Source of the DNA: Aurantimonas marina | GTDB lineage: Bacteria; Pseudomonadota; Alphaproteobacteria; Rhizobiales; Rhizobiaceae | Direction: 5' to 3' | Length of the DNA stretch: 64,000 bases | Assembly (NCBI RefSeq): GCF_017183135.1 | Contig: NZ_JADDXW010000006.1 | Coordinates: 1-64,000, forward strand | Shown: one piece after another, positions 4,018 through 17,938 of the stretch | Numbering within the stretch: the first letter of the stretch is position 1 | Layout of the letters: every line of letters starts with the position of its first letter | Made by a program: the position numbers and the translations under genes | Notes under the pieces: generated by a model | Told to the model about the DNA's origin: nothing | Database searches by the model: none | The model's input: the letters and a program-made list of their open reading frames with translations, nothing else

Positions 4018-4093
4018 GCGCCCATCGTCTAGCGGTCTAGGACGCCGCCCTTTCACGGCGGAAACACGGGTTCGATTCCCGTTGGGCGTACCA
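4018..4093 (+). tRNA. tRNA-Glu (anticodon TTC), integration target
   Basis: The acceptor stem GCGCCCA pairs with TGGGCGT. The anticodon arm CCGCCCTTTCACGGCGG gives anticodon TTC (Glu), the T arm is ACGGG-TTCGATT-CCCGT, and CCA is encoded at 4091-4093. The last 17 bases reappear at 15653-15669, marking this gene as the attachment site of the island that follows. Confidence 0.96.
4077..4093 (+). repeat. attL: 17-bp direct repeat at the 3' end of tRNA-Glu
   Basis: TCCCGTTGGGCGTACCA covers the end of the T stem, the acceptor 3' strand and CCA of tRNA-Glu. It is identical to 15653-15669. Homology stops on both sides: GAT versus GCG before it, GCA versus TTT after it. Confidence 0.8.
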
Positions 4094-4191
4094 GCACCCC
4101 TCTATCGAGCGCTGGTTTTCTGGAAAAACAATCACTTACCACCCGCTAATGTGGCTTGCTTGTCAGGCTGCTGCATAACATCATGTGCAAC

Positions 4192-6090
4192 ATGGCGGTT
4201 GAAGTGGCGATCTCGAATCATCTCACCAGACGCAATGGCGTCTGGCAGTATGTCCGGCGCGTGCCCGAGGATTTGCGGGACGTCTTTCCTTTCACGCGGG
4301 TTCAAAAGTCCCTGCGAACCGAAGTCGAACGGCGCGCTCGGGAGGTTGCCCTCGACCTCGACCGGCTGTGGGATGGGCGCTTTGCCGAAGCGCGCGAGCG
4401 CAAAGGTCTCGTCAGCAATACTGGCGAACTGCCCTCGATCCGCACGGAGGAATGGGCATGGCCGGATTGGGAGGCGCTCGCGGGCTGGTTCGAGGCGAGC
4501 CTTGCCGAGGAGGGCTGGCAGGCCCGTCTCCTGACCATGACCGGCCCGGTGCTGTCGAAGGACGCCGATTTCTCCCGCATCCCCTGGCGCGATGATGTCG
4601 CTGCACGCGAGCACATCGACCGCGCGAAGCTGCTGCGGTCGATGTCGGTTTCGGAGTATGGCGAGACGCGCGCCTCTTTCGTGCGGAGCTACCTCCGGCG
4701 GCTTGGCGTGGCCCTGACGCGATCCGATCCGAACTTTCTTCGCTTCATGGCTGCATGCCATGCGGCGGAGCTTTCTTATCTTGACCTGTTCAGGTTGCGG
4801 GAGTCTCGACAGGGCGGCATCGGCAATACGCATCCCGATGCGATCGAAGGACCTTGGCGGCAGCGGCGAGCGTCGTATCCGCATGAGGCAGCACCCTTTC
4901 AGGGTGGCGCTTCTACCGACGCTTAGAGCGGGGTGGTTCTGTCGACAACGGCGCCGGCATCCGCGGCGGGATGGGCCGGCAAGACGCTTACGCACTGCAT
5001 CGACAAGTGGGTGAGCAACCGGCGATCGGCGAAGCAGGCCGTTCGGGACCATCACCTCAGCGACATGCGCAAGACCGTCGCGGCATTCGAGGCCCATACC
5101 GGCCTTCGCGACATCGGCCTGATCACCCGCAGGCATGTTCTTTCCTTCCGCGATCAATTGAATTCGCGGCCGGACTACAAGACGGCGACCGTGAACAAGA
5201 AGGTCAGCTACATCACCAGCCTCTTATCGACGGCACTGAATGCCGGTTGGATCGATCGCGAGATCGGCAGCAAGGTCTTTTTGCGGGTCCCTGGCGACGA
5301 AGGCACGCGTGAGGCGTTCACCGACCAGCAGCTTACGGCGATCTTCTCGCACCGGATTTTCACGAGCGGTTACCGCTCTTCGTCCGTGAAGGCGTGCGGG
5401 GAGCTGCAGTTCTGGCTGCCGCTGATCGCCTGCATGCACGGCATGATCTCCTCGGAAATCCTGCAACTCGGGCCGGACACCATCCTGCCGCACGACGAAT
5501 ATCCAGATGTCCTGTGCTTTTCGGTGACCAACGCCGGCGGCCGAACCACCAAGACGCTGGCCCGGCGCCGCTGGGTTCCCATCCGCCACGAGCTGCTGGA
5601 TCTTGGTCTTCGCGATCTGGTGGAGCGGGCGCGCGCTGAGGATCGGCCGTGGCTCTGGCGGGAGATGGACAAGGACGGCAAGACGCTGGCGCGTGTCTCG
5701 AACTACGCGTCCACCTTCTTCGGCAATATTCTGAGGAAGGACCTGACGATCACGGAGCCGGGCCTGAGCCTTTATTCGTTCCGACACGGCTTCCAGGACC
5801 GGATCGGACGAGCCGGCTACGGCGAGGAGGTCAAGAAGGCGTTGATGGGGCATGCCGACACGGGCATGACGGGCCGCTACGGGACCAAAAAGGCCCCCAA
5901 GCCGGTTGACATCATCAAGCTGAACGAAGCCATCCAGACACTGTCCTGGCCGTTTCTGAAGGACATTCGTGCAGCCGCTATCGCTACCGGGGTCGACTCG
6001 CAGGCGCCGCGGAGGAGCAAGCCCTCAATAGCGCGCGAACGAGCGGTGCCGACGCACGAAACCATGCAGGCCGCAGGTGCACAGGTGTGA
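4192..6090 (+). pseudogene. Tyrosine-type site-specific integrase, interrupted by an amber codon
   Basis: Two open halves in the same frame (to 4926, and from 4933) together resemble one phage/island integrase. The first half starts with the NGVWQYVRRVPEDLRDVF type of N terminus. The second holds a SAM-like core-binding domain from about 4980 and a catalytic domain ending in SLYSFRHGF, LMGHAD and TGRYG, where the tyrosine nucleophile is codon 5878-5880. A TAG at 4924-4926 separates them. The box I position, usually G-x-R-x-x-E, reads HGMISSE, so the first catalytic arginine is replaced by isoleucine (codon 5446-5448). Its place beside tRNA-Glu fits island integration. It is most likely inactive; suppression of the stop is a less likely alternative. 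Confidence 0.85.
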
Positions 6091-6748
6091 AAGGAGCAAA
6101 TTGAAGCACTTCGAAGCGTCTCGAAGCAAATTTGAAGGGTCCTGCCGGTCCGCATCAGATGACCGCGCCAAAAGCCGGAAATCGGCCGTTGTAAGCCGTC
6201 GAGCAGCTTCAGTGCGTCGGGTGTGAAGCTCAAAATGTGTGGCATAAGATGAGGCACGTCTGTGGCATACCTGCAGCATGTGAGGCAAAGGTGAGGCATC
6301 GCCGTCACAGCGGAGCCTCCAGCGGTTAACGCCGACGGATTTGAAAGACAGGGTTGACGACTGCGAATCACATCGATCGCTGTGGAAAAGCGCAAGCGCG
6401 ATGCGCGTCACAGTGATTGGGCATCAACGGCATGACTCGCCTCGCTGCCGGCTACCCGGCGGGACAAGCCAACCATCAGTGACAGGGACTATTCTATGGC
6501 GCTGAAAAGCGCTTGTCCGGCCAGGAGCGATGCGGCAAGCGGTGCGACGCCGTCCGGCAAGCCCGTCGGCCCACCGCAAGCTGGGCGCTCGCCGCGCCTT
6601 GCTTCGTCGCCGGGCCTCGGCCATGCATCGGCGTCAAGGTGCAGGGAAGCGCCGGTCCAATGGGTTCCTATCACCGCAGGTCGGTATCAATGGCGATTAG
6701 GCCATGCCTCCAACCCCTCTCAAACGGTCTCTTCGCCCGAGATCAGGC
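6091..6748. other. Non-coding stretch between integrase and the curli operon end
   Basis: These 658 bp separate two converging transcription units. I find no supported gene; several frames are open only because the DNA is GC-rich. It contains near-identical AGCAAATTGAAG and AGCAAATTTGAAG copies at 6095-6106 and 6125-6137, and the phased TGWGGCA array listed separately. No clear terminator is visible behind the curli operon. Confidence 0.5.
6238..6298 (+). repeat. Five direct TGWGGCA repeats spaced by about one or two helical turns
   Basis: Copies begin at 6238 (TGTGGCA), 6250 (TGAGGCA), 6261 (TGTGGCA), 6281 (TGAGGCA) and 6292 (TGAGGCA). The steps are 12, 11, 20 and 11 bp, so all copies would face the same side of the helix. 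Such arrays usually bind a protein cooperatively. The position 150 bp behind the integrase suggests integrase arm-type or excisionase sites; this is an inference. Confidence 0.6.
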
Positions 6749-7483
6749 TTAGCCGCATTTTCCGGTGTAGGTGACGATTGGCCAACGGTTCTGTCGCACG
6801 GTTTGTTGGCGAATCCACCCCGACACATCCGAAATGCGCGCCTTGCACCAGTTGCCATCGGAGGCGGTCGTGCATTCGTCGATGACGACGCAGGTGTTCG
6901 GCGGGATGGTCGCCACCACCGATGCGTCCGGACGCGCCTCCGAACGGGCGTTGAGGCGTACCAGAACCTCCGCCATCGGCTTGACGTCCTCGCTCGCGGC
7001 TGTCGGCCTGGCGAGATCCTCCGGCGTCGCGCAGGTCGCAGTATAGCCATAGAACACACAGCCGGTCGCCTGAGAGGCGTCCACCGGCGCCGGGGCGGCG
7101 GCCGCTTCCTCGGTAATACGCTCGAAGACCACCGTGGAGCCCGACGCCGTCTGTCCACTCATCCGGTTCTGGTTGCCGCCAAGCCTAGCGATTACGGCCC
7201 GCTCCGGGCCGAGGAGGCCGAGCTGGTTGTCGACGATCGCCCACCCTTGGAGCGAGGCCATCGGCCCGGCGCAGTTCGAGGATTCCAACGCGTACTGTTC
7301 ATTGTTTCGAGCGCCGGACAACACAATCCTGCAGGCGCCGTCGCCCGAAAAGGCTGGGTCCAGCGTCTGCCAAGTTCCGCTGAAGGCGGCTACGAATGCA
7401 GTTTCGCTCTGCGCCAGGGCCGACCCGCTCCATCCGACGAAGCCAGAGAGTGCTACGCACAAGACAATTGCCGCTCGGCGCAT
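6749..7483 (-). CDS. Secreted AprI/Inh-type protease-inhibitor domain fused to an SH3 domain
   Basis: The 244-residue product has a Sec signal peptide (MRRAAIVLCVALSGF...ALAQ), so it should be periplasmic or exported. Residues about 27-125 match the AprI/Inh (Omp19-like) beta-barrel inhibitor fold: SGTWQTL, a cysteine pair in GACRIVL and SSNCAGP, LQGWAIVDNQLGLLG, and a terminal STVVFERI strand. Known members inhibit proteases in the periplasm. Residues about 175-240 resemble a bacterial SH3 domain, with LNARSEARPDASVV and SGWIRQQTV. The ATG at 7483 has AAAGGA upstream and puts the signal peptide first. It lies 68 bp behind csgH as the last gene of the curli locus; partner protease unknown. 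Confidence 0.78.
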   Translation of the reverse strand: MRRAAIVLCVALSGFVGWSGSALAQSETAFVAAFSGTWQTLDPAFSGDGACRIVLSGARNNEQYALESSNCAGPMASLQGWAIVDNQLGLLGPERAVIARLGGNQNRMSGQTASGSTVVFERITEEAAAAPAPVDASQATGCVFYGYTATCATPEDLARPTAASEDVKPMAEVLVRLNARSEARPDASVVATIPPNTCVVIDECTTASDGNWCKARISDVSGWIRQQTVRQNRWPIVTYTGKCG

Positions 7484-7551
7484 CCTGTAATCCTTTAAAT
7501 TGCCATTAGTCCGCCGGAGATCACCCTCCGCGCCCCGATGTTCCATGATTC

Positions 7552-7953
7552 TCATTGGCCGACCGACAAGGTGCTCGAGGAGAGTTCTCTGTCGTTGGAT
7601 TTCAGCGTCAGTTCCACCGACAGCTTGTCGCCCGGCGTCAGCGAGATGCCGACCGTCGCGACGTCGGCGCTCTCGCCGGCCTTCAGTGAGAACGAGCCGC
7701 CCTGGCTGGTCGACATGCGTCCGGAGGCGCCGCTTTTCTCGATAGACATCAGGGCGTCGACTTCGACGTCGCTCAGCGCGGCAGCGCGACCTGTGAGTTT
7801 CACGCCTGTTTCACTCGTCGTGACCACGATCGAGCCGAGCGCGGCGGCCTTGGCGATCCCCTGCGCCATTGCGGCATTGGTCATGGTGAGTCCCAGCAGG
7901 AGCGAGATAAAGCCAGCAATCGCTGCCCAACGCTTCTTCTTCGGAGAGGTCAT
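7552..7953 (-). CDS. csgH: CsgH-like curli assembly chaperone
   Basis: CsgH is the alphaproteobacterial counterpart of CsgC, a periplasmic chaperone that stops curlin subunits forming amyloid before secretion. The 133-residue protein has a signal peptide ending AAMAQ. The family core follows: a first strand block GSIVVTTSETGVKLTGRAAA, then SIEKSGASGRMSTSQGGSF, SLKAGESADVATVGISLTPG and LSVELTLK. Its start codon overlaps the stop of the preceding curlin gene by 4 bp (ATGA), so the two are probably translationally coupled. The context of four curlin-repeat genes, csgG and csgF supports the call. Assignment rests on motif pattern and neighbourhood. Confidence 0.85.
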   Translation of the reverse strand: MTSPKKKRWAAIAGFISLLLGLTMTNAAMAQGIAKAAALGSIVVTTSETGVKLTGRAAALSDVEVDALMSIEKSGASGRMSTSQGGSFSLKAGESADVATVGISLTPGDKLSVELTLKSNDRELSSSTLSVGQ

Positions 7954-8735
7954 GGTGGTCCGGGTGTTGTCTGGTTGATGGTGACGGCGCCGCGTGTCGT
8001 CACGCCGGCGGAGTTCGTCTGTGTCACCGTCACCGGGCCGAGAGCGTTGGTGATCACCTGCAAATCCGTGAGCGACTGAAGGTTGCTACCGTTCTGGCTG
8101 TAGATGACGGATGAGCCAGGGTTTGAAAGGGTGAGGTCAAGGCTGGCATTGCTGCCGCTTCCGTTCTGCACGATGGCGCCACTCGTTTGAAGGCCGGTCG
8201 CTAGGCTCGCACTATTGTCGTCACCATTCTGGATAACGGCTCCATTGATCGCTCCGGTCTCCGTCGTCCCGCCGAGCAGAGGGCGCGTGAACGGTAGCGA
8301 CAAGGGTGAAGGTTGGTTGCCGTCGACCTGGAGCTCGGCGAAGTTGCCGGTTCCGTTCTGCGCCACGACGCCGACACCCCCATTGCTCGAGGTCACATTC
8401 GCCTCGTTGACGCCGGCGCCATTGTTGCGCTGGTCGAGAAACACGCCGCCGCCGTCGTTCCGGATGGTAATCGTCGCGCGATTGTTGCCGCCCGACTGGA
8501 CCGCCGTATCGGTCAGCGAAATCGGCACCCCGGCATCCAAGTTCGGCAGTTCGCCGGAGCCGTCGACCTTCAGACCTCCGACACGGCTATTGGACGCCAA
8601 CGACTGGTCGACGAAGAGCGAATTGCCGTCGCCGGATTGCTCGATCGTCAGCGTGTTCTGCTGGGCCGAGGCTTGCGCTGCCAAGAGAGCAAACGTCAAG
8701 CCCGTCGTCGTCGAGAGAAGAAAGGCTTTGAACAT
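7950..8735 (-). CDS. Curlin-repeat protein (261 residues)
   Basis: After a signal peptide (MFKAFLLSTTTGLTF...ASAQ) the protein consists of Asn/Gln/Gly-rich strands of the curlin type, such as NTLTIEQSGDGNSLFVDQS, GVVAQNGTGNFAELQVDG, AVIQNGDDNSASLATG and AIVQNGSGSNASLDL. Curlin repeats stack as a beta-solenoid in extracellular functional amyloid. Repeats here are more degenerate and more widely spaced than in the two large curlins, which might suit a nucleator or cap role; that is a guess. I placed the start at the second ATG (8735), directly before the signal peptide; an ATG at 8759 is also in frame. csgH overlaps its stop codon. Confidence 0.85.
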   Translation of the reverse strand: MFKAFLLSTTTGLTFALLAAQASAQQNTLTIEQSGDGNSLFVDQSLASNSRVGGLKVDGSGELPNLDAGVPISLTDTAVQSGGNNRATITIRNDGGGVFLDQRNNGAGVNEANVTSSNGGVGVVAQNGTGNFAELQVDGNQPSPLSLPFTRPLLGGTTETGAINGAVIQNGDDNSASLATGLQTSGAIVQNGSGSNASLDLTLSNPGSSVIYSQNGSNLQSLTDLQVITNALGPVTVTQTNSAGVTTRGAVTINQTTPGPP

Positions 8736-8785
8736 GTCGATCGCTTTCCACAGAACCATCCCGTCGTTGGACGAGAATCGCGTTG

Positions 8786-9352
8786 CTAATACGAACGTTG
8801 CGTGATGCTCACACTATTCGCATTTCCCGCCTGTGAAAAGACCGCCGTATTGTTATTGCCGAACTGTTGAACTGCGGCCTGATTGCCGGCCCCCCGGATC
8901 GACGCGGTGACGGCGTTGCCGTCGCCGTTCTGGGCCAGCGCGAAAAGATTGGAGCGGCCGGTCACGGCGACAGTCATGTCGTTGCCGTCGCCGAGTTGGG
9001 CCATGCCGAAGATGTTGGAGCTGCCGGTGATGGAGACATCCATGGCGTTGCCCTCGCCGTGCTGGGTAAGCCGGCCGGGCAACAGGCCGGTGGCGAGTGG
9101 CGCCCCACTGAAGGCGCCGCCGGATGGTCCGCCATTGCCGTCGCCTTCGATTTTCAGGTTGATCGCGTTGGTCAGCGATCCGCCCGCGCTCGCCGTCTGC
9201 AGCACCTCAAGGCGATTGCCGTCGCCGTCAATCTGGTAGGATACGGCGTTTCTGGCGTCCGAGCCGTCCGAAATGACCAGCAGATTGTCGGCCGTCGCAG
9301 GCGATGCGGCGAGAAGGGCTGCGGCGAAAAGGGCGTGGCGTGCGAGGGACAT
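8786..9352 (-). CDS. Curlin-repeat protein (188 residues)
   Basis: This secreted protein has a short signal peptide (MSLARHALFAAALLAASPATA) and is the closest in size to E. coli CsgA or CsgB (about 151 residues). Clear repeats occur in the second half: LTQHGEGNAMDVSITG, AQLGDGNDMTVAVTG, AQNGDGNAVTASIRG, VQQFGNNNTAVFSQAG and NSVSITQRSY. Their spacing of about 22-24 residues matches the one-turn curlin repeat. It lies between the large curlin gene at 9480-11024 and the 261-residue curlin. A stem-loop just before the start codon includes part of the ribosome site. It could be a nucleator (CsgB-like) or a minor subunit. Confidence 0.87.
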   Translation of the reverse strand: MSLARHALFAAALLAASPATADNLLVISDGSDARNAVSYQIDGDGNRLEVLQTASAGGSLTNAINLKIEGDGNGGPSGGAFSGAPLATGLLPGRLTQHGEGNAMDVSITGSSNIFGMAQLGDGNDMTVAVTGRSNLFALAQNGDGNAVTASIRGAGNQAAVQQFGNNNTAVFSQAGNANSVSITQRSY

Positions 9353-9360
9353 GCGATGTC

Positions 9361-9384
9361 TCCGGAACCGTTGCGGTTTCCGGA
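9361..9384 (-). promoter_or_regulatory. Stem-loop overlapping the ribosome site of the 188-residue curlin
   Basis: On the minus strand TCCGGAAACCG pairs with CGGTTCCGGA around a CAA loop, with one bulged base. The 3' arm runs into CGGAGACATCGC-ATG, so the likely Shine-Dalgarno GGAG is partly inside the stem. It could limit translation of this subunit relative to its neighbours. Confidence 0.45.
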
Positions 9385-9479
9385 CGATCGCAGAAGCACC
9401 TTAAATCCTCGTTTCGAAATCGGTCGAATTGCTGTCTTAATCTGCGAGCCGGATCCGAACCCCGAACATCGCCTGAAGA

Positions 9480-11024
9480 CTATTGTCGGACCAGCAACCG
9501 GTTGCCGTCGCCGGTCTGGCTGAACCCGGCGATGTTGCCGTTGCCATCCTGAACGACCACCGACCGGTTGGCGCTGCCGGCGACGACCGCCGTCACCAGA
9601 TTGCGGGCGCCCGACTGCGACGCCGCAAAGGCGTTGCGGTTGCCGGAGACGATGAAGTCGACCTCGTTGAACGCGCCCTCCTGCCGGATCTTTCCGGGAG
9701 CCAGTCCGGCGACGGCGCTCGCGGCGGCGAGGACGCCGTCGCCGAAGCCGCCCGAGCGGCGTGTGTTGTTGTCGTCGCCGTCGATCTCAAGCCGGACGCG
9801 GTTGTCGGAGCCTTGCTGGCGGAGGGATGCCGCATTGCGCCGACCGTCAAACCGTGCGGCGAGCGCGTTGCGCTCGCCCGACTGCTCGAACACCAACGCG
9901 TTGTCTTCGCCCTCCTGGCGCGCGACCGCCTCGTTGGCGGCTCCCTCGACGACGCCGGTGATGGCGTTGCCGGCGCCATCCTGCAAGAAGCCGAAGAGGT
10001 TGCCGTCGCTGTTGGCGCCGGTGACGTAGGAGATCATGTTGCCGTCGCCGAACTGCGAGATCGACGCCTGCAGGACGCCAAGGTCGCCCGGCACCAGCGC
10101 GAGCCGCCCGGCCCCGTTCCGCCCGTCGCCGCCATTGCCGTCGCCGGCGAGCGTCAGGGTGATCAGATTGCCGGTGCTGGCGACACCGATCTTGCCCTGG
10201 ACGACGTTCTCGATGAAATTCTCCGTGCCGGCCTGCGTCAGATCGGCCCGGTTGCGGTTGCCAGCCTGATCGACGGCACGCACGATGTTGCGGTCGCCCA
10301 GCGACTGCCCGATGGTGACGACGTTGGACGTGCCGTTCTGCCGCGACGTCTCGATCCGGTTGCCGCCCCCCAACTGCGTGGTCGTCAGGCTGTTGCCGGA
10401 GCCCTCCTGAAAAGCGGTGACGAGAACGTTGCCAGCACGAGAACCATCGCCCCGCTGGGAGATCGACACCGAGTTGGTCACGCCGGCGAAAGCCGTGGTG
10501 GAATCGTTGATCTGGATCACCTGGCCGATCGCCTGGGTGGCGTCGTCGGGCCCAGCAGCAACAGCCTGACGCAGCGTGAGGCTGTTGGAGAAAAACGGCG
10601 AGGCGCGACCCAAGGCGCGACTCGCCACTTGTCGGACCGCCTCCAGCACATTGCGGGCGGCCCCCGTGAAGCTCGAAATCTGCTCGATACTGATCCGGTT
10701 GCGGTTGCCGCTCTGGCCGGTGCCAGTCATCACCAGGCCAAGGCTGGGGCGGGCCCCGTCACGGTTGTTGGTGGCGACCTTGTTGCCAAAGCCGGTCTGG
10801 TCGATGGCGATGACATTGCCGAGCCCGTCCTGGGTCAAGCGCAGCGTATCGGCATCGCCGCCGACGACATTGCCGTTGCCGTTTTGATCGATGCGAATCC
10901 GGTTTGTGTCGCCGGTCTGGCCGACGAAGACCTCGTTGTCTCCGGCGGATTGCGCGGAGGCCGAAGCCGATGCGGCGATGCCGGCCAGCAACGCGGCGGT
11001 CGTGCGGATTAGGAGGCGGCCCAT
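9480..11024 (-). CDS. Large curlin-repeat protein (514 residues)
   Basis: The product begins with a signal peptide (MGRLLIRTTAALLAGIAAS...ASAQ) and is built almost wholly of curlin-type strands: NEVFVGQTGDTNRIRIDQNG, NVIAIDQTGFGNKVA, NSVSISQRGDGS, NRADLTQAGTENFI, ALVFEQSGERNALAAR and a terminal GFSQTGDGNRLLVRQ. The regular N-x5-Q-x-G-x2-N spacing is that of amyloid curlins that leave the cell through CsgG. It is over three times as long as E. coli CsgA. A second large curlin precedes it on the same strand after a 114-bp spacer, and a 188-residue curlin follows. Probably a major fibre subunit; subunit role is inferred. Confidence 0.9.
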   Translation of the reverse strand: MGRLLIRTTAALLAGIAASASASAQSAGDNEVFVGQTGDTNRIRIDQNGNGNVVGGDADTLRLTQDGLGNVIAIDQTGFGNKVATNNRDGARPSLGLVMTGTGQSGNRNRISIEQISSFTGAARNVLEAVRQVASRALGRASPFFSNSLTLRQAVAAGPDDATQAIGQVIQINDSTTAFAGVTNSVSISQRGDGSRAGNVLVTAFQEGSGNSLTTTQLGGGNRIETSRQNGTSNVVTIGQSLGDRNIVRAVDQAGNRNRADLTQAGTENFIENVVQGKIGVASTGNLITLTLAGDGNGGDGRNGAGRLALVPGDLGVLQASISQFGDGNMISYVTGANSDGNLFGFLQDGAGNAITGVVEGAANEAVARQEGEDNALVFEQSGERNALAARFDGRRNAASLRQQGSDNRVRLEIDGDDNNTRRSGGFGDGVLAAASAVAGLAPGKIRQEGAFNEVDFIVSGNRNAFAASQSGARNLVTAVVAGSANRSVVVQDGNGNIAGFSQTGDGNRLLVRQ

Positions 11025-11101
11025 CGCGACGATGCCCTTCTAAATGAAAGGTGGCGGCCGTTCGCATGCCGTCGAACGTGCCGCCGCTCTTTATCGGTGC
11101 A

Positions 11102-11119
11102 CCGGGCCTCGCGGCCCGG
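11102..11119 (-). terminator. GC-rich hairpin between the two large curlin genes
   Basis: A perfect 7-bp stem CCGGGCC/GGCCCGG with a 4-base loop lies 20 bp past the stop of the first large curlin. No run of T follows on the minus strand, so it is more likely a partial attenuator or mRNA-stabilising hairpin than a full terminator. Confidence 0.4.
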
Positions 11120-11138
11120 CGCTTCTCAAGCCTTTTGC

Positions 11139-12710
11139 CTACTGGCTAATGCCGAGGCTGTTGCCGCTGCCGGACTGGGTGAAGGCGGCGACGTTGTTGT
11201 TCCCGATCTGCGCCACGACGGCCTGGTTCATGCTGCCGCTGATAGACCCGTCGATAGCGTTGCCGTCACCGCGCTGGTACGTTGCGAAGGCGCTCCGGTT
11301 GCCGGTGACCGTCAGCGACAGTTCGTTTCCGGCCCCCTCCTGGAAGAGGTCGCCCTGCGAGAACGAGGACACGCCCGTCAGCCCAGTGTTGCCGGAGTCG
11401 GCCCGCGCGTCGTCACGTGCGCTGCCGGCCGCCGTCCCGTTGAAGCTGTTGCCCGTGACGGCGAAGTTGTTGTTCAGGCTTCCGGTGATGGTGACGCCGG
11501 CCGTGTTGGTACCGTCCTGCTGCACGTTGAGGATGTTGTCGTCACCCCGGACGATCTCGACGGTGGCCGTGTTGGCATCTGTCTGGTCGATATCGACGAC
11601 GTTACCATCCGCGTTGTTGGAGATCGTGACGCTCGCGTCGTTGGCGCCAGCTCCACCGTCCTGAAGGACGTTCACCATGTTGTCGTCGGAGTTGTTGATG
11701 TCGATCATCGCCAAGTCACCGATGCCCGACTGCGTGACGTCCGTCACGTTGCGGTTGCCGCGAACGTCGATGTTAATGTCGTTGGTCGTGCCGGTCTGGG
11801 TCGTCGTCGCGGCGTTGTCACGGCCCCGCTGGGACAGCAGCGTCAGCGTGTTATCAATGCCGGTCTGGCTCACATCGGCGTCGTTGCCTCCGCCGATCTG
11901 CGTCAGCTCGGTGATTCGGTTGCCCGTCGTGTTGTTAGCGTTGCTCTGGAACGTGGTGGCGGTGTTGTCACCACCTCCGGTGTTCACCTGATTGAGGAGG
12001 CGGATGCCGGTACCCTCTGTACCATTCCCACCACCGTCTTGCGTGATGTTCGCGATGTTGGTGCTGCCGGAGCCGCGATTGTCCTGCCGGGCTTCGTAGA
12101 CGCTAGAATATCCCCGCTGATCCACAGTGAGCTGGTTGCCGTTGCCGGTTTGCGTCAGGCCGGAGCCATCGCTACGCGGACCGCTGACCGTATTGCCGAT
12201 CTTGTTGCGGGTGGATGTCTGATCGATCTCAATCATGTTGGCAGACGCACTGCCGCCACCCACGAAAGTCTGCTTGACATTCGAGACGACATTGATTCCG
12301 CCGCTCTGGTCGATGTCGGCCGTATTGCGGGTGGCGGAACCGCTCGACCGGCCGCGCTGCTGCACCTCGAATATAGTGCCGGTGCCGGTGCTGCCCTGCG
12401 TGATGGTCAGTTCGTTACCATTGTTGATCTGGTCGATCCCGCGCCCGGCCTGATCGCCAGCGACGCCGGCACGCTGGTCGGTGCCCGTCTGCTCGATGTC
12501 GATGCTGTTGAAGCTGCCGTTCTGCGTGACGGCGCCGGGCGGGTTCGTCGGAGCGCCCGCCTCCGAGCTGGTCGCGCCGCTCTGGTCGATGACAAGATCG
12601 TTGTTGTTTCCGGACTGCGCCGTATAGGCCTCGTTGCTCTGCGCATACGCCACGCCCGACATAAACGTCAGCGCGGTCGCGGCCATTAGGACTTTCTTAA
12701 CGGATGCCAT
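11139..12710 (-). CDS. Large curlin-repeat protein (523 residues), first curlin of the cluster
   Basis: Translation most likely starts at the ATG at 12710: AGGGAG lies about 9 bases upstream and a signal peptide follows at once (MASVKKVLMAATALTFMSGV...YAQ). The rest is a long array of curlin strands such as NDLVIDQSG, NSIDIEQTGTDQ, NELTITQGSTGTG, NTADIDQSGG, NQLTVDQRG, NTLTLLSQRGRDN and NVVDIDQTDAN, ending in AFTQSGSGNSLGISQ. Asp and Asn are very frequent, Cys absent. It should be secreted through CsgG and polymerise as surface amyloid. It is first after a 670-bp leader that contains a plausible promoter, so it is the best candidate for the main subunit. Confidence 0.9.
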   Translation of the reverse strand: MASVKKVLMAATALTFMSGVAYAQSNEAYTAQSGNNNDLVIDQSGATSSEAGAPTNPPGAVTQNGSFNSIDIEQTGTDQRAGVAGDQAGRGIDQINNGNELTITQGSTGTGTIFEVQQRGRSSGSATRNTADIDQSGGINVVSNVKQTFVGGGSASANMIEIDQTSTRNKIGNTVSGPRSDGSGLTQTGNGNQLTVDQRGYSSVYEARQDNRGSGSTNIANITQDGGGNGTEGTGIRLLNQVNTGGGDNTATTFQSNANNTTGNRITELTQIGGGNDADVSQTGIDNTLTLLSQRGRDNAATTTQTGTTNDINIDVRGNRNVTDVTQSGIGDLAMIDINNSDDNMVNVLQDGGAGANDASVTISNNADGNVVDIDQTDANTATVEIVRGDDNILNVQQDGTNTAGVTITGSLNNNFAVTGNSFNGTAAGSARDDARADSGNTGLTGVSSFSQGDLFQEGAGNELSLTVTGNRSAFATYQRGDGNAIDGSISGSMNQAVVAQIGNNNVAAFTQSGSGNSLGISQ

Positions 12711-13380
12711 TGTAAATTCTCCCTGTTGATCGCTTGCCTCTGTGGTTGCTGCCTCGGGCAAGATCGCGATTGCATAGTCGCTTCTCATCCCCGGAGGGGA
12801 AGAAGCCCGTTGACCCGCTTTACGGGCGCAATTTTCCGCGCCCGGCACAGCCCGTGCCGGACCCGCTTTTCGAGGCGGTGCCCCACCGCGCAACCCTGGC
12901 AGCCCGGACTTAACGGCCGGCACTGGCGGGCATAACGTTCCTGTCGATACGGACGCCGCATCCGGTCGCCCGTGTTCGGACAGTTTCTCGGAAGTGGTTG
13001 AGATTCCCCCACCCACGCACGCTCCGGTTTCGTCACCGTGGTCAACGAACCGTTAACGAGACGTGCGAACTATACCTCAGTCTTACACAGCGTCAATCGC
13101 CCCGACGCTTATTGTCTTACCTAACGCATTGATAATTAATGCTCGGATTTGTCTCAAATTGACACGATCAGGGGTTCGGCCTCTGCGCCGCGCCTCCGCT
13201 CTTGGGGCGTGCGGCCAAAGACGCTACTCTCGCGAGGGATGGACGTCGGTTTTTGAAAGGAAGGACGGGCGACGCGCACGTCGCGTCCACAGGGGCGGGG
13301 CAGACACGTGCAGGCGGAGAGGCGGCGGACGCAGCCGCACAAGCGCGGCGCGACGAGATTGCGTCGGGCCGCGGGCGCTC
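12711..13380 (-). other. Long leader region upstream of the first large curlin
   Basis: No supported gene lies in these 670 bp between csgG and the first curlin. The frame of the curlin stays open back to 13016 but has neither signal peptide nor ribosome site there. The stretch from about 13050 to 13165 is distinctly AT-rich and holds the promoter candidate given separately and a GCATT/AATGC inverted repeat at about 13128-13144. A hairpin GGGCGC/GCGCCC with an AT loop sits at 12824-12843 in the would-be leader RNA. Confidence 0.55.
13069..13096 (-). promoter_or_regulatory. Candidate sigma-70-type promoter for the curlin genes
   Basis: On the minus strand TTGACG (13096-13091) and TATAGT (13074-13069) are separated by 16 bp. 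This would start transcription near 13062 and leave an untranslated leader of about 350 nt before the first large curlin. Confidence 0.45.
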
Positions 13381-14625
13381 CTAGCGGAACAGCATGCCGA
13401 TCAGGGTGCGTGGCGCGTCCTCCGCGCCACTGTCGTTCGAGCCGACCGCGGGCTCGTCGGGCGCCGGCGCCGGGGGCAGATCGCGCGGCGCCTCTTGGGC
13501 CGGCTGACCACGAACCTGCCCTGGTGCCGGTTTCGCGTCGCTCCCATTAGCGTTCACACCCGGAACTCTTCGGACGATCGGCTGTGCGGGCGGCGGCGTG
13601 ACCACGCGAGGCGTCACCGGTGCGGCTGAGCTTTTGGGTTGCACCACGCGGCGCTGCGTCACCCGCACCGGCCGCGCCGGCACCGTATCGACAACATCGC
13701 CGGCATTCGCGGTTTGTGGTCGCGACGGAGAGACCGCGCCGGCGGTCAGCCTGAAACCGTATTTTTCGTCACGGTAGGCGGCGATATAGGCCTGGCCCGC
13801 TGCCCGGTCGGCGAAGGACCAGACACCCAGCTCGGCGCCCTCGACGATCATCGCCTCGACCGCCTTTTCCACCGCCGATTGCACGGCGATCTGCTTGGGC
13901 TCGTTGTAGGTGGTGCCGGCCTCGGCCTGCAACAGTTCATCGAGCTTCACATAACGGAACGCGCCGCCCTGCAGCGAATAGGACGCCACGGCCTTACGCG
14001 TCGTCACGCTGGTCAGCACCTCGCCGGTCTTGGTCGAGACCGCGCGTAGGGTGACCGTCACGACGTCTTGGATGTATTTGGCATCGCCGCCGATGCCGAG
14101 GAAATTGGCACCGGCGCCCCCGGTCACGGTGTTGGTATCGTAACCGATGATGCCGCCCTGGACGATGATGCCGGCATGCAGCAGCGGTGGCAGGACGTTC
14201 GCGTTGATCTTCTCCTCGCCGCGATACAGACGGCGCATCTCAGTGATGATCTGGCGCTCCTTGAGGAGATCGTCGAGCTCCTTGCGCTCGAGGACCATAA
14301 ACCAGCGTCGCTCGCCGGCGTCCTGCAGCGCCTTGATCAGGATCGCGGCACCGCCCTGGGTGACCGCCCTCGACAGCGTCTGGACGTTTTCGCGCTCCTT
14401 GAACTGACCGGTCAGGTCTTCAAGATCATAAACGGCGACCGCAGTCTTCTTGGCGGGGGGCGGCAGGCGGCGCAACGCGTCGTTGGGGTAGCTGACGGGG
14501 GCCACGACAGGCAACGTGTCGATGTAGGACTCCGTCGTCACGCAACCCGCGAGCGGCGCGATGCACAGCGTCAGAGCGAATCTCCGCGCGAGGCGGGCGC
14601 GCCCCGGATACTCTGAAATCATCAA
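13381..14625 (-). CDS. csgG: CsgG-type curli secretion channel with a proline-rich C-terminal extension
   Basis: CsgG is the outer-membrane lipoprotein that forms the ring-shaped pore for unfolded curlins. The lipobox is clear (CIAPLAGC) and the core matches the family: KKTAVAVYDLEDLTGQF, LSRAVTQGGAAILIKALQ, WFMVLERKELDDLLKERQII, AGIIVQGGIIGYDTNTVTGG and VTVTLRAVSTKTGEVL. The core ends near residue 296 (E. coli CsgG is 277 as precursor). A further 118 residues follow, rich in Pro, Arg and Ala and ending RTLIGMLFR; this tail should be on the periplasmic side or plug-like, but its role is unknown. csgF precedes it by 32 bp, so the two form one operon. Confidence 0.94.
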   Translation of the reverse strand: MMISEYPGRARLARRFALTLCIAPLAGCVTTESYIDTLPVVAPVSYPNDALRRLPPPAKKTAVAVYDLEDLTGQFKERENVQTLSRAVTQGGAAILIKALQDAGERRWFMVLERKELDDLLKERQIITEMRRLYRGEEKINANVLPPLLHAGIIVQGGIIGYDTNTVTGGAGANFLGIGGDAKYIQDVVTVTLRAVSTKTGEVLTSVTTRKAVASYSLQGGAFRYVKLDELLQAEAGTTYNEPKQIAVQSAVEKAVEAMIVEGAELGVWSFADRAAGQAYIAAYRDEKYGFRLTAGAVSPSRPQTANAGDVVDTVPARPVRVTQRRVVQPKSSAAPVTPRVVTPPPAQPIVRRVPGVNANGSDAKPAPGQVRGQPAQEAPRDLPPAPAPDEPAVGSNDSGAEDAPRTLIGMLFR

Positions 14626-14657
14626 ATCCCCCTCGAAAACTGATCTGCCCCCGTAGA

Positions 14658-15125
14658 TCAGTTCGAACTTGTCACAAGCTGTGGAACGACGATCTCCGTC
14701 GTGGTTCCGTCGATCGCATCGAAAATCGTCAGTCGGATGGAGTCCAGCGAGCGCGAGAATGTTACGGTGGTGCTGCCGAACTGTACTGTTCCCTGATCCT
14801 GCGGGTTGTCGCCGAAGATCGCGTCGGTCACCTGTCCGGCAAGAGCGGACAGCAAACGGCCCTGGAGCTGTCGCACGAAGAGGTCGGCGTCGTCGTTGCG
14901 CGCGGTCCCCGGATCCGTCAGTCCGCCACCCCCGGTGAGATCATCATCGGCGTCGCTGGCGGTCGCCTCCCGCTGGGCGTTCGCCACTGCGAAGAGATGC
15001 GAGGAGTTCAACGGGCTGCCGCCGAAGGATGGATTGATCGGCGTGTAGACAAGATCCCCGGCGAAGGCCGGCGACACGGAGACCATGGCAAGCGAAAGCA
15101 ACAGGCAGGTCGAGAAGCGCACCAT
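14658..15125 (-). CDS. csgF: CsgF-type curli assembly protein
   Basis: CsgF is exported and caps the extracellular side of the CsgG pore, where it couples secretion to fibre nucleation. The 155-residue product has a signal peptide (LLLSLAMVSVSPAFA) followed by DLVYTPINPSFGGSPLNSSHLF, the highly conserved N terminus that inserts into the CsgG barrel. The C-terminal half (TVTFSRSLDSIRLTIFDAID) also fits the family. The start has AGAAGGAG upstream. It is the first gene of the leftward csgF-csgG unit. csgE, which usually accompanies these genes, is not found nearby. Confidence 0.93.
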   Translation of the reverse strand: MVRFSTCLLLSLAMVSVSPAFAGDLVYTPINPSFGGSPLNSSHLFAVANAQREATASDADDDLTGGGGLTDPGTARNDDADLFVRQLQGRLLSALAGQVTDAIFGDNPQDQGTVQFGSTTVTFSRSLDSIRLTIFDAIDGTTTEIVVPQLVTSSN

Positions 15126-15752
15126 CGGAATCTCCTTCTAATTGCACCTTACCAACCGGAAATCGCTCTAATATGCAAGGCATTGGGTCAGTGAACGAGT
15201 TCGCGGCCCGATTTCTGTTGCCTGATAGGCACAGGAATCGAGCCGAACGAGTCACTATCGGGCTGGAATGGACGGGCCTGTGCGAGCGGTCTGCTCTGGA
15301 TCGATAAGCGATGTGCTTGCCGGGTGCACTGGCGCGGCGGGAGCTTCGCTCGAATGTCTCTATTTGGAAGGGCAATTGCGTCGATAGGTTCTTTCCTGAA
15401 AGGAAGAAGTTTCGGCTTTCCGAATCGCCCTACCTTGGCTCCGGACGCCCCACTTCGCGAAACAGAAGCTTTGCAGGGCCGTATGCGCGGCCGGCACCCC
15501 CCGATCGATTCTGCGTCGAATGGAGCAGAAACCTGCGGCAGCCGGAATTGCCTTTTCACGACCTTGCATGTGCATAACATCGTGTATAACAATGCGCGAC
15601 AGGAGCGGGGTAAGTTACTGTTTTTTAAGCTGCATTTATATCCAGCGCGGCGTCCCGTTGGGCGTACCATTTTTCTTCATCGCGAACCACTGCCGGGAGC
15701 TGGACGGATCAGCTGAGGCCCGCCCCGGTTTGAACTGCAACGGCGGTAGCGG
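15126..15752. other. Right end of the island, no supported gene
   Basis: This 627-bp stretch holds the csgF promoter region and the right attachment repeat. Frames of 130 and 160 codons are open on opposite strands at 15324-15716 and 15188-15670, but neither shows a recognisable domain or good ribosome site. The DNA becomes AT-rich at about 15560-15650, as often seen next to recombination sites. Confidence 0.5.
15653..15669 (+). repeat. attR: second copy of the tRNA-Glu 3' end
   Basis: TCCCGTTGGGCGTACCA is identical to the 3' end of tRNA-Glu at 4077-4093 and in the same orientation. There is no tRNA body upstream of it, so it is a displaced fragment, as expected at the far end of an element integrated into a tRNA gene. 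Confidence 0.8.
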
Positions 15753-17720
15753 CTATCGGGCGGCTTGTCTGTCGCCCCGCACGCCGGAGTGCATCGCAAC
15801 GATGCGGTCGGCATCGCGACCGTAAACCTCCTCATAGTGGTCAAACGTGCTTTCGAACCATCCGATGCCCTGCGTCGCCGACCGGAGCGCCTGCCCCAGT
15901 TCTTCGAGGGCGCCCGCGGGAACACGTGCACGGAGCAGGTCCCAGCCGCGCGCGTCCGGATTCGGTTCGAAGCCCAGTACGCGGCCCTTCAGCGACGAGA
16001 TCATCGCGACGAGCGCACCGGTATACAGAGACGGCGCGTGGATCGCCGCTTCGTGGATCGGCTGCAGCAGCATCGGTGCCCCCTCCGCCAGCGCCTCCAC
16101 GACCGCCGCCCGGCCTGCCGCCCGAAAGGCGAAGTCCGAGCTGTCGACAGCGTGGTATTGTCCATCGGTCAGAGTCACTCCGATGTCGACCACCGAAAAC
16201 CCGAGCGGCCCCGACACCAAAGCGTCCCGCGCTCCGGCTTCGACCGACGGGATATAGTTTCGCGGCACGGCGCCGCCCTTCACGGTCTCGTCAAAGCTGA
16301 AGCCGCTACCTCGTGGGTTTGGCCGTACGGTCAATTTCACGTCGGCGAATTGCCCCGCCCCGCCGGTCTGTTTGCGGTGACGATGGTGGATGCCGGCCGG
16401 TCGGCTGATCGTTTCGCGCCAGACACCGTCGGGCGCGTGGTCCGAAGCCTTCACGCCAAATTCCTCCGCCAGCATGCCGAGAACGCGACGAAGGTGCATC
16501 GGTCCCTGGAGATGCACGACAAGCGCACCCGTCGCCCCCTCCTGGCTGACCGTCAGGCCCGGATCATCCTCGGCGATGCGGGCAAGGGCCAGGGAAAGCT
16601 TGGCCTGGTCGCGATCGTTCTCTGGCGCCAGGCGGCGGACGAACATCGGCTTGGGCGAACGGGCCCAGGCGGGCGGATCGTCGCTCCGGTCGGCAAAGAG
16701 CAGCCGGCTGACGGCAAGGTGATCCGACTTGAGCGCCAGGGCGATGCCGCCGGTCGGCAGCGGCGACGCCGGCTTGCCCGTGCCCGCCTCCACGAGCGCG
16801 CCCAGATTTCCGCCGGCGAGCGAGGACCCGACGCTTACTCCTTCGACGAGCGCCCGAAGAATTTTCTCCTTGCCGAGATGCTTCCGGTATTGAGCATGAA
16901 ACGTGACGGCCATCGGCCCCGCCTCGCCCACTCCCGATCCGCCGGCCAGCCGCTGACGCAGTCCATCGACGGCCGGGGCCTCATGGCGCAGTAGCTTCAT
17001 CAGCCGGACGACGCCGGCACCATGCAGGGCGGAGCCTATCAGCGCCGGGTTCGCCCGGTTCTCGGTAAGCGCTCGGCAGCAGACCGCATAGAGAGCGCCT
17101 GTCGCCGGTTCGCGGTCCTCCACGATCTCCTCGAGCAACCAATCGTCGAACTCTGATAGGTTTTCCAGCAGCTCCGCCCGCGCCTCATGCTCACGCGCCA
17201 CGACGCTCTTGGGAACCTCGACCAGGGCGGATGGTCCTCCCTCCTGATAGCGCCAGGCGCGCTCGGAGACGAGATCGACCGCGCCGACGACCTGCTCGTC
17301 GTCGCGAATCGGGATCTGGCGAAGCACGATCGGATGGCCGCAATAGTCCTGCAGCCTGGCAACGACGTCGCGGAGTCGGGCCCGGGCATCATCGATACGG
17401 TTGACGAAGACGAGACAGGGCGTGCCCGATGCCTCCACTGCCCGGAAGAACGGCGCCGTGAGCACGGCGGTCTCGGGATCGGGCGAAACGACGATCACCG
17501 CCGCATCGCTGGCCAGCAAGGCCGCGCGCGCTTGCGGCAGTGTCTCGATATCCCCCGGGCAGTCGATGGCGCACCACGGCTCGTCCATAAAGGCGAAGGA
17601 AACGATGCCGAGACCGTCACGAGTCTCGAAGCGCTCGCCCACAGCTTGGAAACCGGCGAGCCGATTGACGAGTGTGGTTTTCCCGGCACCTGCCGGACCG
17701 AGAACCGTGAAGCAGCGCAT
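15753..17720 (-). CDS. EF-G-like translational GTPase paralogue with altered G motifs
   Basis: The 655-residue protein has the EF-G domain order: an N-terminal GTPase, a domain II region around SPLPTGGIALALKSDHL, and EF-G domains III-V with RKQTGGAGQFADVKL and PIHEAAIHAP. The P loop GPAGAGKT is intact. However the usual DxPGH is DCPGDIE, so the catalytic histidine is aspartate, and NKxD reads NRID. The ATG at 17720 is supported by AAAGGAG and places the P loop at once. Canonical EF-G is about 700 residues and usually lies in the str operon, so this is a paralogue with an unknown, possibly non-translocase role. It sits immediately outside the island's right end. Confidence 0.85.
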   Translation of the reverse strand: MRCFTVLGPAGAGKTTLVNRLAGFQAVGERFETRDGLGIVSFAFMDEPWCAIDCPGDIETLPQARAALLASDAAVIVVSPDPETAVLTAPFFRAVEASGTPCLVFVNRIDDARARLRDVVARLQDYCGHPIVLRQIPIRDDEQVVGAVDLVSERAWRYQEGGPSALVEVPKSVVAREHEARAELLENLSEFDDWLLEEIVEDREPATGALYAVCCRALTENRANPALIGSALHGAGVVRLMKLLRHEAPAVDGLRQRLAGGSGVGEAGPMAVTFHAQYRKHLGKEKILRALVEGVSVGSSLAGGNLGALVEAGTGKPASPLPTGGIALALKSDHLAVSRLLFADRSDDPPAWARSPKPMFVRRLAPENDRDQAKLSLALARIAEDDPGLTVSQEGATGALVVHLQGPMHLRRVLGMLAEEFGVKASDHAPDGVWRETISRPAGIHHRHRKQTGGAGQFADVKLTVRPNPRGSGFSFDETVKGGAVPRNYIPSVEAGARDALVSGPLGFSVVDIGVTLTDGQYHAVDSSDFAFRAAGRAAVVEALAEGAPMLLQPIHEAAIHAPSLYTGALVAMISSLKGRVLGFEPNPDARGWDLLRARVPAGALEELGQALRSATQGIGWFESTFDHYEEVYGRDADRIVAMHSGVRGDRQAAR

Positions 17721-17938
17721 GATCGGCTCCTTTACGCGTCGCACTCGCGGCGTTTCGGGTGCCCCGCGCATTGGGGCAATCGCGACGAGTTGTTGGCAGA
17801 ATGTAGCAAAACGGAGCCGCCGTCGATCTCATCTGCGAAACAGCCACCCAGGGACGCTTCTTTCCCAAACTTCGCATCGATGAGACATTGCCGCCGGCCG
17901 AGCCGAGGGAACCTCGGCACCGAACCAGGGAGCAACCC

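What the first reader, a model, noticed from the sequence alone, without database searches (positions are those of the whole stretch)
4077..15669. Curli amyloid locus carried on a tRNA-Glu-integrated island
The 17-bp 3' end of tRNA-Glu, including CCA, is repeated exactly and in the same orientation 11.6 kb downstream, and a tyrosine integrase relic sits just inside the tRNA copy. Everything between is the curli-type locus plus non-coding DNA. That implies a whole functional-amyloid export system moved as one unit and was then fixed when the integrase died. Curli loci are usually described as resident chromosomal operons; an att-bounded curli island is unusual and lets the boundaries be defined to the base.
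Basis: partly seen in the sequence, partly recalled or inferred. Interest (0 to 1): 0.85.

Follow-up and report, generated by a model that had tools for sequence, protein, structure and literature searches.

The report
Curli island in a tRNA-Glu gene
A full set of genes for extracellular amyloid (curli) fibres sits on a small mobile DNA element inserted at a tRNA gene of an Aurantimonas bacterium, which suggests that such a fibre system can be passed between species as a package.

Summary
Observation confirmed: the last 17 bp of tRNA-Glu (4077-4093) recur exactly at 15653-15669; within 2 mismatches the genome's only other copy is a second tRNA-Glu. Between them lie a tyrosine-integrase frame with one in-frame stop and an eight-gene csg locus.

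The right repeat is an element end. A 24-bp site that sits beside the tRNA in related integrase loci also lies 58 bp inside it, and two csg-less elements of this integrase family (G003, G755) show the same layout with 56-57 bp.

The unit has moved. In A. marianensis it fills the same tRNA-Glu and ends at the same base, yet synonymous divergence is 0.00-0.17 over its outer genes, 0.33-0.34 in its middle, and 0.39-0.47 in five flanking genes. In two more species the int-csg unit has different flanks. CsgG contradicts the backbone gene recJ (AU p=0.004).

Not shown: a clean empty site, excision, or fixation by integrase loss (the A. marianensis frame is open). tRNA islands are a known kind; curli as att-bounded cargo was not found in my ten paper searches. 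A sister island carries a MopA-like peroxidase.

The parts
4018..4093 (+). tRNA-Glu (TTC), complete; integration target
   Evidence: ARAGORN
4077..4093 (+). left 17-bp core (3' end of the tRNA)
4129..4140 (+). left copy of a short inverted repeat (CAATCACTTACC), 35 bp inside the core
   Evidence: read from the sequence; counterparts in G003 and G007 by eye
4172..4195 (+). 24-bp motif of two 12-bp direct repeats, overlapping the integrase start; candidate arm-type site
   Evidence: 19 of 22 positions
4183..6090 (+). tyrosine integrase frame with N-terminal DUF6538, interrupted by an in-frame stop at 4924-4926
   Evidence: uninterrupted homologue in G004
6749..7483 (-). Inh/SH3-domain secreted protein, accessory gene of the csg locus
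   Evidence: PF06347; homologue found in 13 of 13 csg loci examined; Inh (PF02974) in the G090 homologue
7552..7953 (-). csgH, curli chaperone
   Evidence: NF041112
7950..8735 (-). curlin-type gene 4 (weak repeat match)
   Evidence: 0.018, below cut-off; position and homologues
8786..9352 (-). curlin-type gene 3
   Evidence: PF07012
9480..11024 (-). curlin-type gene 2
   Evidence: PF07012
11139..12710 (-). curlin-type gene 1
   Evidence: CsgB/CsgA models below cut-off, (given as the longer ORF 11139-13016); start chosen by eye at the signal peptide
13381..14625 (-). csgG, outer-membrane export pore
   Evidence: PF03783
14658..15125 (-). csgF
   Evidence: PF10614
15571..15594 (+). right copy of the 24-bp motif, 58 bp before the right core
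   Evidence: 19 of 22 positions
15609..15620 (+). right copy of the short inverted repeat (GGTAAGTTACTG)
   Evidence: read from the sequence
15653..15669 (+). right 17-bp core; right end of the island
   Evidence: homology to G004 stops at 15669
15753..17771 (-). EF-G-like gene, first gene of the right flank (not part of the island)
   Evidence: Pfam; shared by G004, G006 and 3-561

Best explanation
4077-15669 is an integrative element (11,576 bp from core to core) inserted by site-specific recombination at the 3' end of tRNA-Glu. A DUF6538-type tyrosine integrase encoded next to the tRNA recombined a 17-bp core carried by the element with the identical tRNA end; the tRNA stays whole on the left and a bare 17-bp copy marks the right end. 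Paired 12-bp repeats just inside each end are its likely arm-type binding sites. The cargo is a curli system: CsgF, the CsgG pore, four curlin-type subunits, CsgH and an Inh/SH3 accessory protein, all on one strand. Shown here: the boundaries, the end motifs, the same layout in sister elements, and a history that differs from the flanks. Inferred: a circular intermediate, arm-site function, fibre production. I recognised no transfer genes in it, so passage between cells needs another vehicle, or uptake followed by homologous recombination. Here the integrase frame has a stop, so this copy is probably not mobile by itself.
For: Exact repeat unique to tRNA-Glu ends. Motif 19 of 22 at both ends, next best 15 in the window and 16 in 240 kb of the same genome. 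G003 and G755: tRNA-Glu, integrase, motif (17 and 20 of 22), 56-57 bp, exact 17-bp repeat of their own tRNA, delimiting 35 and 37 kb. Same right end in G004. An integrase hit directly after a tRNA in 8 of the 11 genomes with hits. Lower dS than flanks in two species pairs, different flanks in G005 and G007, CsgG versus recJ conflict.
Against: No clean empty site. G005 and G007 have the csg-integrase unit away from an intact tRNA-Glu: G007 has a core with 1 mismatch and no tRNA body, G005 has no core. The integrase lacks the arginine expected at the first catalytic position in the six copies aligned, so activity is unproven. The middle genes (dS 0.33-0.34) are closer to the flanks than to the ends. 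G027 and G355 showed no right-end tRNA repeat in the stretches fetched. Composition is only mildly atypical: 2 of 43 background windows deviate more.
Confidence: 0.9

Rival explanations
1. Composite: csg was resident beside tRNA-Glu and an integrase element inserted next to it, so csg is a bystander.
For: Integrase and csg occur apart: integrase remnants without csgG in G001, G003 and 3-561, csg without detected integrase at the csg locus in the 9 non-Aurantimonas loci examined.
Against: The right motif and core lie beyond csgF, on the far side from the integrase. The integrase-Inh/SH3 junction recurs in G000, G004, G005, G007 and, decayed, G003. 5 of 7 non-Aurantimonas csp/tRNA-Glu regions examined keep recJ nearby, and none of the 7 gave a csg match.
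Confidence: 0.05
2. The island is old in the genus and now spreads mainly by ordinary homologous recombination in its shared ends, not by its integrase.
For: Mosaic divergence inside the island, a stop in this integrase and breaks in the G003 copy, a decayed Inh/SH3 gene behind the G003 integrase at the orthologous tRNA-Glu, and flank windows that also vary from 76 to 96% identity.
Against: Different genomic flanks in G005 and G007; open integrase frames in G004, G027, G355 and G755; tandem elements in G004 and G755.
Confidence: 0.3
3. Remnant of a prophage or phage satellite with csg as a passenger gene set.
For: A tyrosine integrase at a tRNA gene; csgG is mentioned in papers on marine phages (search listing only, PMC9004378 and PMC7029224).
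Against: No phage gene recognised among the ORFs of the block; viral-contig scan for the integrase gave 52 pattern matches, none confirmed.
Confidence: 0.04
4. Chance repeat beside a resident csg operon.
For: None beyond the short length of the repeat.
Against: 8e-6 exact hits expected, one genome-wide besides tRNA ends, plus the motif geometry shared with G003 and G755.
Confidence: 0.01

Closest known systems
tRNA-integrated genomic islands with a tyrosine integrase (class recalled; example KpGI-5, a fimbrial-operon island in a tRNA-Met gene of Klebsiella, PMC3419637, title and abstract start)
   Same: Insertion at a tRNA 3' end, direct repeat of that end, integrase next to the tRNA, adhesive-surface cargo
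   Different: Cargo here is a curli (type VIII secretion) system; 17-bp tRNA-Glu core; DUF6538 integrase
Curli systems of Alphaproteobacteria (PMC3521004, passages; Pseudovibrio cluster, PMC3806328, passages)
   Same: csgF, csgG, several curlin genes and csgH; no csgC, csgD or csgE recognised in the locus
   Different: Bounded by integration ends; an Inh/SH3 gene in the locus that is not mentioned in the passages I read
Acinetobacter baumannii islands G19ST25/G19ST78 (PMC3224125, passages)
   Same: A CsgG-like gene on a genomic island
   Different: Three lipoproteins, one CsgG-like; the passage names no curlin or CsgF
Sister elements in G003 and G755 (found here)
   Same: tRNA-Glu, same integrase family, 17-bp core, end motifs and spacing
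   Different: 35-37 kb, other cargo, no csg match apart from a decayed Inh/SH3 gene in G003

Membership tests
tRNA-integrated genomic island | Left end at a tRNA 3' end, exact direct repeat of it at the far end | tested here: met
tRNA-integrated genomic island | Integrase gene next to the tRNA | tested here: met
   open frame only in the relative G004, one in-frame stop here. Pfam integrase domain scores are below cut-off; DUF6538 is above it
tRNA-integrated genomic island | Absent from the site in relatives, with an empty site | tested here: inconclusive
   csg absent at the tRNA-Glu of G006, 3-561 and others, but no clean empty site found
tRNA-integrated genomic island | History differs from the chromosome | tested here: met
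   composition only weakly
tRNA-integrated genomic island | Excision or transfer | not testable with these tools
   needs an experiment
Integrative and conjugative element | Own conjugation genes | tested here: not met
   ORFs of the block are the integrase, Inh/SH3 and csg genes; no conjugation gene recognised
Curli (type VIII secretion) system | CsgG pore and CsgF | tested here: met
   above Pfam cut-offs
Curli (type VIII secretion) system | Curlin-repeat subunits | tested here: met
   two genes above cut-off, two weaker
Curli (type VIII secretion) system | CsgH chaperone, as in Alphaproteobacteria | tested here: met
Curli (type VIII secretion) system | Amyloid fibres produced | not testable with these tools
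   needs an experiment
Tyrosine recombinase | Catalytic residues R, H/K, R, H, Y (recalled) | tested here: inconclusive
   SFRH box, GH and RYG present; isoleucine where the first arginine is expected in six of six copies aligned; no structure obtained

The most novel reading that the evidence does not exclude
An unrecognised family of tRNA-seeking elements, run by a DUF6538 integrase without the canonical first catalytic arginine, carries whole extracellular modules among Aurantimonas and relatives: curli here, and at the orthologous tRNA-Glu of G003 a 35-kb island with a MopA-like peroxidase, a type I exporter and a multicopper oxidase, laid behind the relic of an earlier curli island. In the curli version the subunit genes are swapped while the mobile ends stay nearly identical.
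Probability: 0.45. Interest if true: 0.78.

Novelty: new member of a known kind. Interest (0 to 1): 0.62.

Why it matters
The survey of curli systems concluded that horizontal transfer is a minor player in their spread (PMC3521004, passages). Here a candidate vehicle, its ends to the base, its likely recombination sites and several stages (occupied, tandem, eroded, relocated) are visible in one genus, so gain of an amyloid-fibre system in one step becomes directly testable. The 17-bp core plus end motif also gives a handle to find further islands of this family.

Tried and rejected
Clean empty site: none among the relatives fetched; the nearest is the scar in 3-561. tRNA-Lys next to the csg loci of G162 and G230, and tRNA-Met near that of G005: no repeat of the tRNA 3' end found, so not claimed as att sites. 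Gene order in G090 (csgG-csgF placed before Inh/SH3) looks circularly permuted, but with two blocks any swap does; not used. Structures of the integrase and of the Inh/SH3 protein: the machine was busy in 11 of 11 attempts, so no fold evidence. Solved-structure search with the integrase: 8 hits, best E 0.52, none meaningful. Viral contigs: no relative of the integrase confirmed. Papers: ten searches in an open-access library; I saw no description of an att-bounded curli island, of Aurantimonas curli, or of DUF6538 (0 papers). Passages only were read, in four papers. Fetched but not analysed: L204 (G011 csg region) and L316 (G034). Of 29 family genomes with a CsgG match, csg neighbourhoods were examined in the 13 with the closest CsgG; the other 16 were not.

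Caveats: I wrote the 24-bp consensus after seeing left ends of the integrase loci and both ends of the window, so its score there is not blind; the right ends of G003 and G755 were scanned afterwards. Scores of 16 to 17 also occur elsewhere (G003 50098: 16; G355 46689: 17 without a tRNA repeat). Many gene names in relatives' cargo outside csg are by eye.
Full report
WHERE. The window is the start of contig C56 (207,572 bp) of a 4.03-Mb genome. Its nearest relatives with names are Aurantimonas: A. coralicida MAG HyVt-316, an uncultured Aurantimonas (isolate 3-561, L086) and A. marianensis LRZ36.

THE REPEAT. tRNA-Glu(TTC) is complete at 4018-4093. Its last 17 bases recur at 15653-15669, same strand. 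With up to two mismatches the genome has three copies: these and the end of a second tRNA-Glu on C1 (1 mismatch); the reversed control has none. Base composition predicts 8e-6 exact hits in 64 kb. The C1 tRNA is itself followed by a stretch homologous to 4094-4237, the left end of a related element.

CONTENTS. An integrase frame (about 4183-6090) with one in-frame stop; a non-coding stretch; then, all on the minus strand, an Inh/SH3 gene, csgH, four curlin-type genes, csgG and csgF; then about 530 bp without a recognised gene. CsgG, CsgF, CsgH and two curlins score above curated cut-offs; the other two curlins are weaker. The Inh/SH3 gene occurs in 13 of 13 csg loci examined, csgH in 12 of 13 (none at the threshold in G257). 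The N-terminal half of the G090 homologue matches the Inh protease-inhibitor family above its cut-off. No csgC, csgD or csgE was recognised, as stated for Alphaproteobacteria in PMC3521004 (passages).

ARE THE ENDS REAL? Near the start of related integrases lies a 24-bp site of two 12-bp direct repeats (TGCATAACATNN TGCATAACATGG). The window has it at 4172-4195 and at 15571-15594, 58 bp before the right core, each 19 of 22; the third best in the window scores 15 and the best in 240 kb of this genome 16. G004 has 19 of 22 at both ends; G007 19 at the left and 16 at the right of its csg unit. The stronger test came from elements without csg, scanned afterwards. In G003 tRNA-Glu, a broken integrase, a motif of 17 of 22, 56 bp and an exact 17-bp repeat of its own tRNA end delimit 35 kb. 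In G755, of another family, tRNA-Glu, an open integrase frame, a motif of 20 of 22, 57 bp and an exact 17-bp repeat of its own tRNA end delimit 37 kb; another motif, of left-end type, starts 76 bp after that core. Against this: no second tRNA repeat was found in the 46 and 80 kb searched for G027 and G355. G005 shows a 54.6-kb interval between a tRNA-Glu and a 47-bp copy of its 3' part with a 16-of-22 site, but no integrase match. A short inverted repeat also lies inside both cores of the window (4129-4140, 15609-15620).

INTEGRASE AND tRNA. Integrase hits were found in 8 of 80 relatives, 8 of 394 family genomes and 3 of 397 order genomes, 11 genomes in all. In 8 of 11 a hit directly follows a tRNA: tRNA-Glu in G000, G001, G003, G004 and G755, tRNA-Met in G027, G034 and G355. 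In three it does not: G005 and G007, where it adjoins csg, and a remnant in G230. G007 has a core with one mismatch before the integrase but no tRNA body.

SAME SITE IN RELATIVES. Outside the genus, 7 csp/M15/tRNA-Glu regions were examined; 5 (G010, G016, G017, G019, G020) have recJ within about 5 kb of the tRNA, 2 (G008, G040) do not in the stretch fetched, and none of the 7 matched a csg query. In G004 the csg island fills the same tRNA-Glu; homology to the window ends at exactly 15669, and the core there is followed by 50 bp resembling the left end again, then other genes, i.e. a tandem insertion. Its EF-G-like flank is on another contig. In G006 about 42 bp of left end and then 13.2 kb of other genes separate tRNA-Glu from the EF-G-like gene. 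In 3-561 about 105 bp of left end and an 80-bp integrase piece lie between them. G003 has a decayed Inh/SH3 gene directly behind its integrase, which I read as a relic of a csg island; no other csg gene was found there (E up to 0.5 gave only weak curlin matches). No clean empty site was found, and 15670-15736 has no counterpart in the flanks of G004, G006 or 3-561.

HAS IT MOVED? (1) Between G000 and G004, dS is 0.39-0.47 in five flanking genes; in the island it is 0.000 in csgH (133 codons), 0.034 in csgF, 0.056 in Inh/SH3, 0.11-0.12 in the two parts of the integrase and 0.17 in curlin 4, but 0.33-0.34 in curlins 2 and 3 and csgG. DNA identity rises from 87% to 97% at the tRNA, is 68-84% in a non-coding part (6251-6750), reaches 100% near csgH, and curlin 1 does not align; flank windows range from 76 to 96%. 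So the outer parts were exchanged after the species split, and the middle has another history. (2) G005 and G007 share 13 kb of csg plus integrase remnant at 97%; outside it only a 94-bp inverted match was found at E<=1e-20. G007 offers only about 1 kb on the left, before its contig end. dS in 6 of 7 csg-locus genes is 0.00-0.04 against 0.05-0.16 in csp, glyoxalase, M15 and recJ; csgF (0.11) is the exception. (3) In 13-row trees recJ groups the four csg-bearing Aurantimonas (100/99); CsgG puts G005/G007 with G080/G090 of other genera (100/99), and holding Aurantimonas together is rejected (AU p=0.0044). One backbone gene was used. Composition is weak support: tetranucleotide distance 0.171 against 0.095 (sd 0.023), 2 of 43 background windows higher; GC 63.3 against 64.5%.

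HOW IT MOST LIKELY WORKS. The integrase would join a circular form to the tRNA through the 17-bp core with the 12-bp repeats as arm sites (inferred); the tRNA is kept because the element supplies the same bases. The csg genes would export curlins through CsgG with CsgF and assemble them outside, CsgH restraining early assembly (established for curli in general, recalled). The Inh/SH3 protein may shield subunits from proteases (guess). The stop in this integrase makes self-excision unlikely here, but it does not explain fixation, since the G004 frame is open and the island is still there.

THE INTEGRASE. Where the first catalytic arginine is expected (recalled motif) the six copies aligned (G000, G003, G004, G027, G355, G755) have isoleucine. 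The SFRH box, GH and RYG are kept. Pfam integrase domains score below cut-off, DUF6538 above it. G004, G027, G355 and G755 are open over the matched length (a longer match of G027 counts a TAG, and the translation of G027 ends there). No structure could be computed.

NOVELTY. tRNA-integrated islands are well known, so I file this as a new member of that kind. In ten searches of an open-access library I saw no att-bounded curli island; the nearest was an A. baumannii island with a CsgG-like lipoprotein (PMC3224125, passages). Subscription papers are not covered.

A SISTER ISLAND. The G003 island encodes a 2,375-aa protein whose searched part (2,313 aa) has animal haem peroxidase and RTX repeats, an RTX/cadherin protein, an ABC transporter, an HlyD-type protein, a multicopper-oxidase domain protein and a T2SS F protein. 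The architecture resembles MopA, the Mn(II)-oxidising peroxidase reported from A. manganoxydans (PMC6247904, passages). Whether the published mopA locus has such ends I did not test.

Noticed in passing
L187, L310, L311 (G003:C1, about 2056190-2091272): 35-kb island at the orthologous tRNA-Glu with a MopA-like haem peroxidase/RTX protein, type I exporter genes and a multicopper oxidase.
   Followed up: partly
window 6749-7483: Inh/SH3-domain gene next to csgH in 13 of 13 csg loci examined; looks like an unnamed curli accessory gene.
   Followed up: partly
window 4183-6090; P0001-P0004: Integrase family with DUF6538 and no arginine at the expected first catalytic position in six copies aligned.
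   Followed up: partly
L313-L315 and L190 (G005:C1:1062691-1117350): 54.6-kb interval between a tRNA-Glu and a 47-bp copy of its 3' part, with a motif-like site but no integrase match.
   Followed up: no
L273, L275 (G162, G230): In two species of one other genus the csg locus lies beside a tRNA-Lys(CTT), without a detected repeat of its 3' end.
   Followed up: partly
window 11139-12710: Curlin gene 1 does not align at DNA level between the window and A. marianensis although both sides do: possible cassette exchange of the subunit gene.
   Followed up: no
window 15753-17771: Divergent EF-G-like protein, about 40% identical to EF-G over part of its length in the same genome; neighbour shared by G004, G006 and 3-561.
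   Followed up: no
L074/L075 (G004:C66): About 1.16 kb insert, transposase-like by eye, at the 3' end of the Inh/SH3 gene in A. marianensis.
   Followed up: no
L186 (G002): Sequence after tRNA-Glu looks like the start of a related integrase by eye; below the threshold of the protein search.
   Followed up: no
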